Shown piece after piece: positions 1,955 to 8,040 of a DNA stretch of 8,173 nucleotides (its first letter is position 1; every line of letters starts with the position of its first letter). The DNA is from Bifidobacterium breve (lineage in GTDB: Bacteria; Actinomycetota; Actinomycetes; Mycobacteriales; Mycobacteriaceae), in assembly GCA_943331415.1 (NCBI GenBank), contig CALQLM010000027.1, positions 1-8,173 on the forward strand, read 5' to 3'. The notes under the pieces were generated by a model, which worked only from the letters and a program-made list of their open reading frames with translations, had not been told where the DNA came from and made no database searches. The position numbers and the translations under genes are program-made.

Positions 1955-2281
1955 TCAGCGCAGCGAACCCGACAAGTCGATGGTCAACACGCCGCACATG
2001 ATCAGCACGATGCCGGCCATCATCAGCGGGGTCAGACGTTCGGAGAACAAAAACCGACCGGCCACCGCCACCAGTGCCACACCGCACGCCGTCCACATGC
2101 CGTAGGCGACCCCGACCGGCATCCCCAGCCGCAAGGTCAGCCACAGCAGGGCGAACGAGATCAGATAGGCGATCACCACCGGGGCGATCCACGCCCGGTT
2201 GCGGAATCCGTCGGAGGCCCGCAGCGACAGGGTTGCGCACACTTCAACCAGGATCGCGCCCACCAACGTCAGCCACATCAT
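1955..2281 (-). CDS. SMR-family efflux protein, second subunit of a pair
   Basis: A 108-residue protein with four predicted membrane helices, the usual SMR size. It has the conserved membrane glutamate in helix 1 (E13, in LVEVCATLSLRAS) and the SMR signature GMPVGVAYGMW at residues 53-63, with Y60 and W63. SMR proteins exchange protons for cationic drugs or small cations as dimers. Its ATG overlaps the stop of the upstream SMR gene (ATGA on the minus strand, 2281-2278), indicating translational coupling and probably a heterodimer. Arginines lie mainly in loops 1 and 3 (R21, R27, R29, R82; R76 near the end of helix 3), opposite to its partner, so an N-out orientation is predicted. A second ATG follows directly (MMWL), so the start may be one codon later. 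The substrate cannot be read from the sequence. Confidence 0.9.
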   Translation of the reverse strand: MMWLTLVGAILVEVCATLSLRASDGFRNRAWIAPVVIAYLISFALLWLTLRLGMPVGVAYGMWTACGVALVAVAGRFLFSERLTPLMMAGIVLIMCGVLTIDLSGSLR

Positions 2282-2622
2282 GGGCCGGTCTCCTCTGCGG
2301 CAGCGGGGTGGGAGCCGAACTCCACCATCAGCACCCCGGCGATGATGAGCGCGATGCCGATAACGATCGGAGTGGTGAAGGGGTCATTGAAGATCACCGC
2401 GGCGATCGCGGCGATCAGTGCGGTGCCCATCGCGCCCCAGATGCCATAGGCCACCCCGACCGGCATCCCGGCCCGCAGCACCTTGGTGAGCATCGCGAAC
2501 GCGGTTACATATCCGACCGCCACCAGCACCAGCCACGCCGGGTGATCCTGGGACGCCCGCATGGCCAGCGTGCCGGTGACCTCGGCGATGATCGCGGCGC
2601 ACAAGAAAGCCCATTTGCCCAT
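2278..2622 (-). CDS. SMR-family efflux protein, first subunit of a pair
   Basis: A 114-residue, four-helix SMR protein. Helix 1 carries the proton/substrate-binding E14 in AEVTGT, close to the EmrE motif AEVIGT. The GMPVGVAYGIW signature is at residues 52-62 with Y59 and W62. There is no Trp three residues after the glutamate, which argues for the Qac/EmrE drug-exporting type rather than the Gdx guanidinium exporters. ATG 2622 was chosen over longer in-frame starts because AAAGG (2636-2632) lies 9 bases upstream and E14 then falls at the family position. Positive residues cluster at the N-terminus and loop 2 (K3, K47, R50; only R22 in loop 1), predicting N-in, the reverse of its partner. The C-terminus has a short polar tail (HPAAAEETGP). 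It is first in a probable operon SMR-SMR-malQ. Confidence 0.92.
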   Translation of the reverse strand: MGKWAFLCAAIIAEVTGTLAMRASQDHPAWLVLVAVGYVTAFAMLTKVLRAGMPVGVAYGIWGAMGTALIAAIAAVIFNDPFTTPIVIGIALIIAGVLMVEFGSHPAAAEETGP

Positions 2623-5098: not shown

Positions 5099-5647
5099 GT
5101 GGGAGACACACTCACCGCAGGACAAAAGCTGGGTAAGGGCGATTCGCTCACATCCGGCAACGGGGCATACACCTTGACGCTGCAGGACGACGGAAACCTC
5201 GTCCTCGCGGTGCGCGGGGAGGCCGTCTGGGCCACCGGCACCAATGGCGAGGGCGCTGATCGCGCCGAGGTCCAAAGCGATGGCAATTTCGTGCTCTACG
5301 CCGGTGACAAGCCGGTCTGGCACACCGACACCAAGGGCAAGAAGAACGTCAAGCTGGTACTTCAGGATGATCGCAATCTGGTGCTGTATGCCGCCGATGG
5401 CGCTGCCTGGAACTCGCGCACCGAGACTGACGCCCCGCCGCCCCCGGTCGTGGTCGAAGAAGAGGTCGTCGAGATCGCGCCGGTGGCCGTCGAGGTGCGC
5501 ACGCACACTGTGGTCTCGGGCGACACACTGTTCAATATCGCCAAGCAGTACCTCGGCGACGGCAATCGCTACCCGGAACTGGCTGCCGCCAACGGGATCG
5601 CCAACCCCGATCACATCGAGATCGGGCAGGTCATTAACATCCCCTGA
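5099..5647 (+). CDS. Bulb-type mannose-binding lectin with C-terminal LysM domain
   Basis: A 182-residue two-domain protein starting with GTG. Residues ~1-107 form a beta-prism II (B-lectin) domain with three QxDxNxVxY-type sugar sites: QDDGNLVLA (29-37, final Tyr replaced by Ala), QSDGNFVLY (59-67) and QDDRNLVLY (89-97), each followed by a W (44, 74, 104). Residues ~108-133 are a Pro/Glu/Val linker. Residues ~134-182 are a LysM domain (HTVVSGDTLFNIAKQYLGDG ... IEIGQVINIP), which usually binds peptidoglycan or chitin-type glycans. A LysM lectin of this architecture is known from M. smegmatis. No signal peptide or membrane segment is visible (N-terminus MGDTLTAGQKLGKG), so the export route or a cytoplasmic site is open. 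It lies 100 bases after the oxidoreductase gene, with its own strong ribosome binding site. Confidence 0.92.
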   Translation: MGDTLTAGQKLGKGDSLTSGNGAYTLTLQDDGNLVLAVRGEAVWATGTNGEGADRAEVQSDGNFVLYAGDKPVWHTDTKGKKNVKLVLQDDRNLVLYAADGAAWNSRTETDAPPPPVVVEEEVVEIAPVAVEVRTHTVVSGDTLFNIAKQYLGDGNRYPELAAANGIANPDHIEIGQVINIP

Positions 5648-5778
5648 CCTGCACCTTATGGTCTAGTACGCCAAGCGGCGCGGACCCGCAATAAATAGTC
5701 GGTAACGATCGGGCGGGAACCCCGATACACAGTCGACACATTGTTGCGACCGCGCCGTTTGCGCGTCCGAGACCGATC

Positions 5779-5784
5779 GAGGTG
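5779..5784 (+). promoter_or_regulatory. Ribosome binding site that selects a TTG start
   Basis: GAGGTG sits 4 bases before TTG 5789. This short but workable spacing supports TTG 5789 over another in-frame TTG at 5741, which has no such site and would put an arginine-rich stretch before the signal peptide. Confidence 0.5.
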
Positions 5785-5788
5785 TATT

Positions 5789-6496
5789 TTGACCCGCTTC
5801 CTGCGATACATCCTCGTCGCCGCGGCGGCGGTGGCGGCTTTTGCCGCTGCGGTCACCCCGGCCGCCTCGGCCGAGAACGTCGTCACGGTGTTCCCCGGGA
5901 TGGAGATTCGTCAGCAATCCACCATGTGCACGCTGGGCTTTGTCGATCCGGTGGCGCGAATCGCCTTCTCGGCCGGCCACTGCCGCGGAAACGGCCCGGT
6001 CACCGACCGCAACGGGCGCTATATCGGTGTCGTCACCACCTCGCGTGATAACACCCCCGACGGCTCGGTGGTGCGGGTCGACCAGGTGATTTCCGATTAC
6101 GAGACCATCACCCTGGCGCCCAACGTGGCCATCAGCAACGTTCTTCCGGGCGGCCAGGCCCTGGTGGCTGACGCCGCCGCGCCGCTGGCGGTCGGCCAGC
6201 AGGTCTGCCACTTCGGCATTGTCACCGGCGAAAGCTGCGGCATCATCGAGCGGGTCAACAACGGCTGGTTCACCATGACCAACGGCGTGGTCAGCCAGAA
6301 GGGCGACTCCGGCGGTCCGGTCTACACCCTGACCGGCAACGGCCAGGCGGTCATGATCGGTCTGTTCAACAGCACCTGGGGGAACCTGCCGGCCGCGGTG
6401 TCCTGGCACGCGATCGGCCAGCAGCTGCGCGAGGACATCGGCGCGGTCAACGTTGCCGTCAACAGTGTCGTCAACGCCGCCGCCCCCGCCAACTGA
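5789..6496 (+). CDS. Secreted trypsin-like serine protease (S1/streptogrisin fold), Rv1815-like
   Basis: A 235-residue exported protein. From TTG 5789 the N-terminus is a typical Sec signal peptide: MTRFLRY, a hydrophobic Ala/Val core, and ASA at 26-28 as the likely cleavage site before ENVV. The mature chain shows a chymotrypsin-fold catalytic set: H64 in FSAGHC, D103 in ISDYETI (comparable to the DY motif of streptogrisins; D98 is the alternative) and S174 in KGDSGGP. Four cysteines fit two disulfides, C47-C65 around the catalytic His and C140-C150 (VCHFGIVTGESCG), as in streptogrisins. It closely resembles remembered M. tuberculosis Rv1815 (VFPGMEIRQ, VNNGWFTM). Only about 35 residues lie between the signal peptide and the catalytic His, so the usual pro-region is absent. 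The C-terminal tail has three VN steps (AVNVAVNSVVN). Substrate unknown. The 141 bases before it hold no clear promoter or terminator. Confidence 0.9.
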   Translation: MTRFLRYILVAAAAVAAFAAAVTPAASAENVVTVFPGMEIRQQSTMCTLGFVDPVARIAFSAGHCRGNGPVTDRNGRYIGVVTTSRDNTPDGSVVRVDQVISDYETITLAPNVAISNVLPGGQALVADAAAPLAVGQQVCHFGIVTGESCGIIERVNNGWFTMTNGVVSQKGDSGGPVYTLTGNGQAVMIGLFNSTWGNLPAAVSWHAIGQQLREDIGAVNVAVNSVVNAAAPAN

Positions 6497-6502
6497 GTCG
6501 AA

Positions 6503-6518
6503 CTAGAACACGTTCTAG
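6503..6518. promoter_or_regulatory. Perfect 16-bp palindrome matching the KstR operator
   Basis: CTAGAAC-AC-GTTCTAG is a perfect 7-bp inverted repeat around a 2-base centre. The inner 14 bases (6504-6517) fit the published KstR pattern TnnAACnnGTTnnA at every fixed position. KstR is the TetR-family repressor of mycobacterial cholesterol catabolism genes, released by a cholesterol-derived CoA ester. The site is 33 bases before the start of a KstD-like flavoprotein gene and 6 bases after the protease stop, so it most likely controls the flavoprotein. A different TetR regulator with a similar site cannot be excluded. Confidence 0.8.
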
Positions 6519-6538
6519 CCACGTCGCCGCCCCGGCGA

Positions 6539-6544
6539 TATCCT
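6539..6544 (+). promoter_or_regulatory. Candidate -10 box for a leaderless flavoprotein transcript
   Basis: TATCCT fits the mycobacterial TAnnnT -10 form and ends 7 bases before ATG 6552, so transcription would begin at or next to the start codon. No ribosome binding site precedes this ATG, which agrees with a leaderless mRNA, a common form in mycobacteria. A good -35 is not evident; the KstR-like palindrome occupies the area just upstream, well placed for repression. Confidence 0.5.
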
Positions 6545-6551
6545 CATCGGA

Positions 6552-8015
6552 ATGAGCGGACTCGAGATTCCAGAAACCGTCGACGCCGGGTCGGTGACCG
6601 AATGGTCCGATGACGTCGACGTGGTGGTGATCGGTTTCGGTATCGGCGGCGGCTGCGCGGCGGTCACCGCGGCCGCGGCCGGCGCGCATGTCCTGGTTCT
6701 GGAACGGGCCGCCGTCGCCGGCGGGACCACCGCCATGGCAGGTGGGCACTTCTATCTCGGCGGCGGCACCGCGGTGCAGCAGGCCACCGGTCATGCCGAC
6801 AGCGCCGAAGAGATGTACAAGTACCTCGTCGCGATGTCACGGGAACCCGAGCACGACAAGATCCGGGCCTACTGCGAGGACAGCGTCGAGCATTTCAACT
6901 GGCTCGAGGATCTCGGGATCGCCTTTGAGCGCACCTACTACCCGGAGAAGGCGGTCATCCAGCCCAATACCGAGGGCCTGATGTACACCGGTAACGAGAA
7001 GGTGTGGCCGTACAAGAACATGGCCGTGCCTGCCCCGCGCGGTCACAAGGTGCCGGTGCCCGGCGATACCCAGGGCGCAGCCATGGTGATCGACCTGCTG
7101 GTGAAGCGGGCCGCCGAACTCGGCGTCGAGATCCGCTATGAGACCGGCGCGACGAACCTGGTGACCGAGAACGGCGATGTGGTCGGGGTGTCATGGAAGC
7201 GTTTCGGTGACACTGGCGCGATCCGGGCCAAATCCGTGGTGATCGCCGCGGGCGGGTTTGTGATGAACCCGGAGATGGTCGCCAAATACACGCCCGAACT
7301 CGCCGAGAAACCCTTCGTTCTGGGCAACACCTACGACGATGGACTGGGCATCCGTCTTGGTGTCTCTGTCGGCGGTGCCACAAAACATATGGACCAGTCC
7401 TTCATCACCGCACCGGTCTATCCGCCGGCGGTCCTGCTGACCGGATTGATCGTCAACAAACTCGGCAAGCGATTCGTGGCCGAGGACTCCTACCATTCCC
7501 GCACGTCGGGTTTCGTGATGGACCAACCCGATCATGCCGCGTTCCTGATCGTCGACGAGGACCACCTGCAGCGTCCGGAATTCCCGTTGATCAAGTTCAT
7601 CGACGGCTATGAGACGGTCGCGGAGATGGAGACCGCGCTGGGAATCCCGGCGGGCAACCTGGCTGCCACTCTGGAGAGCTACAACAAACATGCCGCGATC
7701 GGCGAGGACCCGGATTTCCACAAACAGCCGGAATACCTTGCGCCACAGGACAACGGACCGTGGGCCGCATTCGATCTGTCGCTGGGTAAGGCGATGTATT
7801 CGGGTTTCACCGTCGGGGGATTGGCCACCGACGTGGACGGCGAGGTGTTACGCGAGGACGGCAGCGTCATTGGCGGCCTGTATGCCGCCGGCACCTGTGC
7901 ATCCAATATCGCCCAGGACGGCAAGGGCTACTCCAGCGGTACACAACTCGGCGAAGGCTCGTTCTTCGGCCGCCGGGCAGGCGCGCACGCGGCAGCGAGC
8001 GCGCAGAAGCTTTAG
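6552..8015 (+). CDS. FAD-binding 3-ketosteroid dehydrogenase/fumarate reductase-like flavoprotein (Rv1817-like)
   Basis: A 487-residue flavoprotein of the family that includes 3-ketosteroid delta1- and delta4-dehydrogenases and fumarate reductase flavoprotein subunits. The FAD Rossmann motif is GFGIGGG (28-34) after DVVVI, with E51 as the ribose-binding acid, followed by AGGTTAMAGG (56-65). A second FAD region, KSVVIAAGGFVMNPEM, lies in mid-protein, and the C-terminal GKGYSSGTQLGEGSFFGRRAG closes the FAD site. The length equals and the sequence closely follows remembered M. tuberculosis Rv1817. The KstR-type operator upstream points to a role in steroid degradation; the exact reaction is not known and a Delta-dehydrogenase or reductase activity is inference. 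ATG 6552 matches the Rv1817 N-terminus (MSGL) and has no ribosome binding site. Its TAG stop lies inside the terminator-like hairpin. Confidence 0.92.
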   Translation: MSGLEIPETVDAGSVTEWSDDVDVVVIGFGIGGGCAAVTAAAAGAHVLVLERAAVAGGTTAMAGGHFYLGGGTAVQQATGHADSAEEMYKYLVAMSREPEHDKIRAYCEDSVEHFNWLEDLGIAFERTYYPEKAVIQPNTEGLMYTGNEKVWPYKNMAVPAPRGHKVPVPGDTQGAAMVIDLLVKRAAELGVEIRYETGATNLVTENGDVVGVSWKRFGDTGAIRAKSVVIAAGGFVMNPEMVAKYTPELAEKPFVLGNTYDDGLGIRLGVSVGGATKHMDQSFITAPVYPPAVLLTGLIVNKLGKRFVAEDSYHSRTSGFVMDQPDHAAFLIVDEDHLQRPEFPLIKFIDGYETVAEMETALGIPAGNLAATLESYNKHAAIGEDPDFHKQPEYLAPQDNGPWAAFDLSLGKAMYSGFTVGGLATDVDGEVLREDGSVIGGLYAAGTCASNIAQDGKGYSSGTQLGEGSFFGRRAGAHAAASAQKL

Positions 8016-8034
8016 CGCACGCGGCAGCGAGCGC
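7983..8034 (+). repeat. Pair of 20-bp direct repeats across the flavoprotein stop codon
   Basis: The same 20 bases, GCGCACGCGG then CAGCGAGCGC, occur at 7983-8002 and 8015-8034, 32 bases apart. The first copy codes for the end of the flavoprotein (AHAAAS); the second starts with the last base of the TAG stop and is non-coding. The second copy supplies the loop and part of both arms of the hairpin at 8009-8040. This looks like a local duplication of the gene's 3' end or part of a dispersed repeat. Confidence 0.85.
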
Positions 8035-8040
8035 TAAAGC
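8009..8040. terminator. Hairpin between convergent genes, probable bidirectional terminator
   Basis: GCTTTAGCGC (8009-8018) and GCGCTAAAGC (8031-8040) are perfect 10-bp inverted repeats with a 12-base loop. The plus-strand flavoprotein stop (8013-8015) is inside the left arm, and the minus-strand ABC transporter stop (8046-8044) is 3 bases past the right arm. No T-tract follows on the plus strand; many mycobacterial terminators lack one. The hairpin fills almost the entire gap between the two genes. Confidence 0.75.

What the first reader, a model, noticed from the sequence alone, without database searches (positions are those of the whole stretch)
6503..6552. KstR-type operator in front of an Rv1817-like flavoprotein
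A perfect palindrome meeting every fixed base of TnnAACnnGTTnnA lies 33 bp before the flavoprotein ATG. This places a poorly characterised KstD-like enzyme in the cholesterol regulon of this species. In M. tuberculosis, from memory, a TetR gene (Rv1816) sits between the protease and the flavoprotein; here it is absent and only the operator-like site remains, so control may have moved from a local regulator to global KstR.
Basis: partly seen in the sequence, partly recalled or inferred. Interest (0 to 1): 0.8.

Follow-up and report, generated by a model that had tools for sequence, protein, structure and literature searches.

The report
Cholesterol-regulon operator before steroid-type flavoenzyme
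Just before the start of a flavoenzyme gene that resembles a steroid dehydrogenase, this mycobacterium carries the same kind of DNA switch that sits beside its recognisable sterol-breakdown genes, so the gene is likely repressed by KstR and predicted to be switched on together with cholesterol breakdown.

Summary
In detail: CTAGAACACGTTCTAG lies at 6503-6518, 34 nt before the flavoprotein ATG. With a matrix built from 47 published KstR sites it scores 28.5 bits, 4th of 18 motif matches in its own draft genome; the seven other strong ones lie beside kstR, hsaA, kshA, kstD and three further enzyme genes. The flavoprotein's closest solved relative is 3-ketosteroid-delta4-(5alpha)-dehydrogenase, not delta1-KstD, although other mycobacteria hold a closer paralogue of that enzyme.

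'Control moved from a local TetR to KstR' is not supported. In 17 of 45 relatives with the TetR and VOC genes the same strong operator already precedes a VOC-flavoprotein operon, downstream of TetR. A different palindrome precedes the TetR gene. In four operator-bearing genomes rated 100% complete no such TetR was found. The window's lineage appears to have lost TetR and VOC and kept the operator-promoter module with its 21-nt spacing. The other 28 TetR-VOC relatives (named species recalled as slow growers among them) have only a weak site; the 11 Mycolicibacter loci have none. M. smegmatis MSMEG_3658, in the 2007 KstR regulon, is probably this operon. Binding and induction are untested. Verdict: a sound new member of a known regulon.

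The parts
6503..6518 (+). KstR-type operator CTAGAACACGTTCTAG (14-bp core 6504-6517)
   Evidence: Exact pattern match; 28.5 bits with a matrix from 47 published KstR sites, published leave-one-out median 25.2; strong site in 34 of 79 orthologous loci
6539..6544 (+). Predicted -10 box TATCCT, 21 nt after the operator core and 7 nt before the ATG; points to a likely leaderless transcript
   Evidence: Same 21-nt spacing in 29 of the 31 loci aligned (L017: 9; L001: no box found), and in 14 of 14 genomes matching the module pattern, although 8-30 nt were allowed. The generic sigma-70 scan found no promoter, so this box rests on conservation
6552..8015 (+). Flavoprotein gene, Rv1817-type (NCBIfam PRK07121.1-1), likely 3-oxo-5alpha-steroid delta4-dehydrogenase-like
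   Evidence: NCBIfam NF005508 940 bits, cut-off 537; best solved relative 4at0, 356 bits; Y314, Y460 and S462 in 80 of 80 aligned rows
5741..6496 (+). Upstream gene: Rv1815-family serine proteinase (true start not settled); its stop lies 7 nt before the operator core
   Evidence: NCBIfam NF051463 295 bits, cut-off 175; conserved neighbour

Best explanation
The inverted repeat at 6504-6517 matches the published KstR operator and likely lets the repressor KstR hold the flavoprotein gene (6552-8015) off until sterol breakdown begins. Shown: the site, its rank among the sterol-gene sites of the same genome, its conservation, and a fixed spacing to a -10-like box TATCCT (6539-6544) that lies 7 nt before the ATG. 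Inferred: transcription starts at or next to the ATG (leaderless), the operator covers the -35 region, and bound KstR blocks RNA polymerase; a sterol-derived inducer releases it (inducer recalled, not tested). The module is likely ancestral to the locus: in relatives it precedes a two-gene operon, VOC (glyoxalase-like) gene plus flavoprotein, downstream of a TetR gene that has a different palindrome before it. In the window's lineage TetR and VOC appear to have been lost, and the same operator-promoter module now directly precedes the flavoprotein. The enzyme is predicted to dehydrogenate a 3-ketosteroid, most likely at delta4 of 5alpha-reduced steroids.
For: Matrix from the 47 sites of Kendall 2007, Table 3 (PMC1995591): window site 28.5 bits; 13 of 47 published sites score higher by leave-one-out. 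Own draft genome: its 18 exact motif matches split into 8 at 22.5 bits or more and 10 at 7.8 or less; the 7 strong ones besides the window lie beside kstR and an acyl-CoA dehydrogenase gene, hsaA (a piece at a contig end), kshA, kstD and a hydratase gene, an acyl-CoA dehydrogenase and an SDR gene, an LLM oxidoreductase and a cyclase gene. The kstR operator of this genome has the same 14 bases on the other strand. A strong site is in 17 of 45 TetR+VOC+ loci and 16 of 21 TetR-/VOC- loci. In 28 other same-genus genomes the flavoprotein is in 28 and a strong site in 15; in four of these 15 (G125, G173, G193, G232) no such TetR was found at E<=1e-30. A KstR orthologue of at least 85% identity is in 19 of 22 genomes whose locus lacks TetR (in two of them in two pieces). 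Kendall 2007 lists MSMEG_3658 among four added KstR motifs and says it overlaps or lies in a coding region; MSMEG_3655/3656 are bacA (Rv1819c) orthologues, and an ORF that I read as an ABC ATPase follows the flavoprotein in M. litorale; the TetR stop codon forms the first three bases of the operator in 13 of 15 loci checked.
Against: No binding or expression data for this species. Five of 21 TetR-/VOC- loci have no strong site: L007, L014, L033 and L044 none, L010 weak. The other 28 of 45 TetR+VOC+ loci have only 9.5-16.3 bits, under every published site (leave-one-out minimum 17.1), and all 11 Mycolicibacter loci have none, so KstR control is not universal. A KstR orthologue was not found in three of 22 searched genomes, two of which keep the site (G018, G019; drafts). 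A score is not binding: one published site of 22.2 bits (Rv0223c) was EMSA-negative. The own-genome ranking scored the exact-pattern matches only, in a 63% complete draft. The MSMEG_3658 identification is by position only; I saw neither Table 4 nor the M. smegmatis sequence. PMC5270728 (passages) counts only kstD1 among six M. smegmatis kstD genes as KstR-controlled; whether that list includes the Rv1817 type was not checked. For the enzyme: at least six of the 120 listed homologues are named succinate dehydrogenase or fumarate reductase by a source, against three named 3-oxo-5alpha-steroid 4-dehydrogenase.
Confidence: 0.85

Rival explanations
1. The palindrome is the orphaned operator of the lost Rv1816-type TetR, left without a partner or taken over by KstR only after the loss.
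For: TetR lies directly upstream of the operator in many relatives, and TetR genes often control neighbours.
Against: A different conserved palindrome, GAGAGCnnTGCTCT, precedes the TetR gene (27 of 29 loci examined, at most 1 mismatch). Operator and TetR vary independently: 8 of 15 operator-bearing genus genomes lack a TetR within 1.3 kb upstream and in 4 none was found, while 8 TetR-bearing genomes have only the weak site. The operator is the KstR consensus and matches sites beside sterol genes.
Confidence: 0.06
2. Another TetR-type regulator with a KstR-like motif, rather than KstR, reads the site.
For: TetR regulators with related palindromes are common (recalled), and the motif alone cannot name the protein.
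Against: Same motif class as the site beside kstR itself and six other strong sites of this genome, most beside sterol-type genes; KstR orthologue present in most genomes that keep the site.
Confidence: 0.06
3. The site is a non-functional relic, or binds KstR without effect on the flavoprotein.
For: Five of 21 TetR-/VOC- loci have no strong site.
Against: Operator columns 99-100% identical against 54-60% upstream and 67-84% downstream; fixed 21-nt spacing to the -10-like box in 14 of 14 genomes with the module.
Confidence: 0.04

Closest known systems
KstR (Rv3574) regulon of M. smegmatis and M. tuberculosis, Kendall 2007, PMC1995591
   Same: 14-bp operator TnnAACnnGTTnnA close to the start of a lipid or steroid redox gene; the same genome has the kstR, hsaA, kshA and kstD sites.
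   Different: This gene is not named in the text seen; the likely M. smegmatis counterpart, MSMEG_3658, is listed but would sit in a VOC-flavoprotein operon. The held text of that paper does not contain Rv1817 (it was not among the papers found).
3-ketosteroid-delta4-(5alpha)-dehydrogenase of Rhodococcus jostii RHA1 (ro05698, PDB 4at0)
   Same: Best solved relative, 356 bits over residues 12-483; Tyr, Tyr and Ser conserved at the positions recalled as catalytic. PMC6593523 (passage) calls Rv1817 and ro05698 confirmed delta4(5alpha)-KSTDs.
   Different: A paralogue in a related genome is much closer to 4at0 (775 bits), so the window enzyme is a sister subfamily, not its orthologue.
KstD, 3-ketosteroid-delta1-dehydrogenase
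   Same: FAD_binding_2 protein with KstD models among its weaker matches; own-genome kstD also has a KstR-type site.
   Different: 149 bits against a curated cut-off of 788 for the PRK07843 model.
Rv1815-TetR(Rv1816)-Rv1817 locus
   Same: Rv1815-family proteinase and flavoprotein neighbours.
   Different: TetR and the VOC gene, found together upstream of the flavoprotein in 45 of the 80 loci, are gone here.

Membership tests
KstR operator/regulon | TnnAACnnGTTnnA with flanks like the published sites | tested here: met
   Exact; 28.5 bits against a published leave-one-out median of 25.2
KstR operator/regulon | Ranks with sterol-gene sites of the same genome | tested here: met
   4th of 18 exact-pattern matches; gap between 22.5 and 7.8 bits
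KstR operator/regulon | kstR gene present in the genome | tested here: met
   NF033703 334.8 bits, cut-off 280
KstR operator/regulon | Site conserved before orthologues | tested here: inconclusive
   Strong in 34 of 79 named loci and 15 of 28 other same-genus genomes; weak in 29 and 9, none in 16 and 4
KstR operator/regulon | KstR binding and derepression or cholesterol induction | not testable with these tools
   Needs gel shift, ChIP or expression data
Rv1816-type TetR operator | Carries the palindrome found before the TetR gene | tested here: not met
   GAGAGCnnTGCTCTC has no match in the window with 0-1 mismatches; that this palindrome is the TetR's own site is inferred from position
3-ketosteroid-delta4-(5alpha)-dehydrogenase | Full-length similarity to 4at0 and its Tyr/Tyr/Ser positions | tested here: met
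   356 bits; Y314, Y460, S462 in 80 of 80 rows; the catalytic role of these residues is recalled
3-ketosteroid-delta4-(5alpha)-dehydrogenase | Orthologue of ro05698 | tested here: not met
   A closer paralogue (775 bits) exists in a related genome
3-ketosteroid-delta4-(5alpha)-dehydrogenase | Enzyme activity on 3-keto-5alpha-steroids | not testable with these tools
   No assay
KstD (delta1) | Passes a KstD equivalog cut-off | tested here: not met
   149.4 of 788 bits for PRK07843; 175.5 of 789 for PRK12844

The most novel reading that the evidence does not exclude
The Rv1817-type enzyme is an overlooked KstR-controlled branch of sterol ring breakdown for 5alpha-reduced steroids, working with a VOC partner in many fast-growing mycobacteria. 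Its operator eroded in the slow-growing lineage and vanished in Mycolicibacter, so the same conserved enzyme has been cut loose from cholesterol control in the branch that contains the pathogens.
Probability: 0.4. Interest if true: 0.6.

Novelty: new member of a known kind. Interest (0 to 1): 0.42.

Why it matters
It would place a conserved but little-studied flavoenzyme (found in 28 of 28 other same-genus genomes) in the sterol regulon of a large mycobacterial group, and it corrects the evolutionary story: the KstR-type operator is shared with relatives that keep TetR, and what seems to have changed is the loss of TetR and VOC in one lineage and of the strong operator in others. It also gives a testable reason why KstR surveys in slow-growing species would miss a gene whose relatives carry the site.

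Tried and rejected
Rejected: orphaned TetR operator (different palindrome before TetR; independent presence). Rejected: delta1-KstD identity. Rejected: chance match. One search scanned only 500 bp upstream and at first made TetR-bearing species look operator-less; one search widened this and searches showed the VOC gene. My first guess that TetR itself overlaps the flavoprotein start was wrong: it is the VOC gene, and the 'TetR?' column printed is a marker for the VOC end. One search scored minus-strand loci in the wrong orientation; one search replaces it. The generic promoter scan found nothing. One paper search for 3-ketosteroid with 4AT0 found none, and the structure paper (PMC3438930) is not held, so the catalytic residues are recalled. 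M. tuberculosis and M. smegmatis sequences were not examined by name; no locus so named was among the 80. No fold was predicted.

Dropped rows: L038 has no upstream sequence; L048, L025 and L078 have short upstream sequence; L080 was left out of the tree and of the residue count; one search aligned 31 loci and left out L024, L041, L047 and L078 of those with a strong site; searches examined 29 of the 45 TetR-bearing loci upstream of TetR, and the stop codon in 15 of 17; L065 was not held and not searched. In one search only the best 100 of 118 (G125) and of 112 (G232) candidates were scored; G173 and G193 were scored in full.

Full report
The site. TAGAACACGTTCTA lies at 6504-6517 on the + strand and is the only exact TNNAACNNGTTNNA in the window (0.03 expected; 5 of 200 shuffles have one). 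The inverted repeat extends to 16 bases, 6503-6518. The spacer AC is not self-complementary. Thirty-four bases separate it from the ATG at 6552. The upstream Rv1815-family proteinase ends at 6496.

Is it a KstR site? I built a symmetrised 18-bp matrix from the 47 sites in Table 3 of Kendall 2007 (PMC1995591; passages and sections 10, 12 and 13 seen). The window site scores 28.5 bits; 13 of the 47 published sites score higher by leave-one-out, whose median is 25.2 and minimum 17.1. The window lies in a draft assembly of 1.89 Mb, 63% complete, with 18 exact pattern matches. I fetched all of them. Eight score 22.5-31.9 and ten 7.8 or less. The seven strong ones besides the window lie beside kstR (NF033703 over cut-off) and a large acyl-CoA dehydrogenase gene (fadE34 by position, recalled), hsaA (a piece at a contig end), kshA (PF19298), kstD (PRK07843 over cut-off) with a hydratase gene of the hsaE kind, an acyl-CoA dehydrogenase with an SDR gene, an LLM oxidoreductase and a cyclase gene. 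Over 704,651 bases of the 80 ortholog loci, 51 stretches reach 12 bits; apart from one (L015, 13.2 bits), all lie upstream of the flavoprotein or its operon, two of them (L016, L018) being second sites beside the main one. The matrix was not run over whole genomes.

What is downstream? The flavoprotein passes NCBIfam PRK07121.1-1 (940 bits, cut-off 537) and fails the KstD models. Its best solved relative is 3-ketosteroid-delta4-(5alpha)-dehydrogenase 4at0 (356 bits); delta1-KstD chains reach about 131 bits. Y314, Y460 and S462 align with the residues I recall as catalytic in 4at0 and are invariant in 80 of 80 rows; the two paralogues looked at have them too. A caution: one of these paralogues scores 775 bits with 4at0, so the window enzyme is a sister subfamily. 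One paper (PMC6593523, passages only) states that Rv1817 and ro05698 are confirmed delta4(5alpha)-KSTDs and cites a paper that is not held. Among the 120 listed homologues three are named 3-oxo-5alpha-steroid 4-dehydrogenase by a source and at least six succinate dehydrogenase or fumarate reductase.

Gene order in relatives. Of 80 named ortholog loci (the best 80 of 276 relatives), 79 have upstream sequence. Classes: TetR+VOC+ 45, of which 17 with a strong site and 28 with a weak one (9.5-16.3 bits); TetR-VOC+ with strong site 1; TetR-VOC+ with no site 11, plus one with short upstream sequence (L048); TetR-VOC- 21, of which 16 strong, 1 weak, 4 none. In the 17 the operator lies downstream of TetR and directly before a VOC gene (163-aa Glyoxalase_4 protein in L021) that ends at or just before the flavoprotein start. 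In 13 of 15 of them checked, TetR's TAG stop is the first three bases of the operator. The weak-site class includes named species I recall as slow growers (M. shimoidei, M. celatum, M. scrofulaceum, M. gastri and others); all 11 of the no-site class are named Mycolicibacter.

A second sample. The pattern operator-N{8,30}-GATAKYCTC is in 14 of 301 family genomes drawn evenly by the tool: 14 of 29 in the window's genus including its own, and 0 of 272 in other genera; all 14 matches have the same length although the gap could vary. The flavoprotein is in 28 of 28 of the other genus genomes. Fifteen of the 28 have a strong site (7 with TetR within 1.3 kb upstream, 8 without), 9 a weak one and 4 none. 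TetR is found anywhere in 20 of 28; of the 8 operator-bearing genomes without adjacent TetR, four have TetR about 1 kb beyond the operator and in four (G125, G173, G193, G232) none was found at E<=1e-30, with candidates partly unscored in G125 and G232.

Who reads the operator? A different palindrome, GAGAGCnnTGCTCT, lies 55-88 bp before the TetR match in 27 of 29 loci examined. It is absent from the window (one match with 2 mismatches far away, at 981) and from 20 of 21 TetR-less loci including the window, at 1 mismatch or less. In the 22 genomes behind TetR-less loci that were searched, TetR is absent from 21 (the exception, G026, belongs to L078, whose upstream sequence is short), VOC from 22, and a KstR orthologue of at least 85% identity is found in 19 (in G011 and G015 in two pieces); G019 has only a 49% relative, G013 and G018 none. 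Most of these are drafts, so absences are provisional. So the operator mostly stays when TetR goes, and KstR is the known regulator still there to read it.

Evolution. On a quick flavoprotein tree (SH-aLRT only) the TetR-/VOC- rows including the window form one group of 21 rows (support 94; it includes L038 of unknown state), with L041 elsewhere: at least two changes for that state, three for TetR absence and five for the operator (states set by hand). Change counts cannot tell gain from loss; loss is my inference from the wide spread of TetR and VOC.

How it would work. The box TATCCT (6539-6544) sits 21 nt after the operator core and 7 nt before the ATG; the 21-nt spacing is kept in 29 of 31 aligned loci. 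A start at or beside the ATG would make a leaderless mRNA and put the operator over the -35 region. The generic sigma-70 scan found no promoter, so this rests on conservation.

Already known? Kendall 2007 names MSMEG_3658 among four added regulon motifs, and among those that overlap or lie inside coding regions. MSMEG_3655 and 3656 are bacA (Rv1819c) orthologues (PMC11218476, passage; PMC8088520, passages, for 3655), and an ORF that I read as an ABC ATPase follows the flavoprotein in M. litorale. By position MSMEG_3658 is therefore probably the VOC gene or the flavoprotein. Table 4 itself was not in the text held. Full-text searches for KstR with Rv1817, Rv1817, MSMEG_3658 and ro05698 listed no paper whose title, abstract or passages seen discuss KstR control of this gene; many journals are not in that library.

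Rv1816 in M. tuberculosis is described as binding mmpL loci and kasA and responding to palmitic acid (PMC6463170, passages), and as having been linked to fatty-acid metabolism (PMC10843139, passage), which fits a role apart from the flavoprotein.

Noticed in passing
28 of the loci L031-L080, about 570-720 nt upstream of the flavoprotein: The weak-site TetR+VOC+ class keeps a lopsided element TAGAACnnGTTCA near the end of TetR that scores under all published KstR sites, yet all 28 have a 9.5-16.3-bit match; its reader is unclear.
   Followed up: partly
L021 about 2670-2750 and 28 other loci, upstream of TetR: The Rv1816-type TetR is preceded by a conserved palindrome GAGAGCnnTGCTCT and a second similar stretch (CAAGAGCAGTGATCTC) next to it; in L021 a divergent F420H2-quinone-reductase-type gene begins nearby, so this TetR probably controls itself and perhaps that gene.
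   Followed up: partly
L016 3432-3449 and L018 3432-3449: A second, weaker KstR-like site lies 31 nt upstream of the main operator.
   Followed up: no
L001, L004: Two records titled Bifidobacterium breve carry this mycobacterial locus at 90-92% protein identity; the titles look mislabelled.
   Followed up: no
window 8009-8040: A 14-bp inverted repeat (93% complementary, 4-nt loop) spans the flavoprotein stop codon, overlapping an exact 20-bp direct repeat (7983-8002, 8015-8034); it has no T run.
   Followed up: no
window 1955-2622: Two adjacent small multidrug resistance (SMR) family genes on the - strand, overlapping by a few bases, suggesting a heteromeric pump pair.
   Followed up: no
window 5099-5647: A protein with a lectin-like (B_lectin, below cut-off) part and a C-terminal LysM domain, present at this locus in many relatives.
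   Followed up: no
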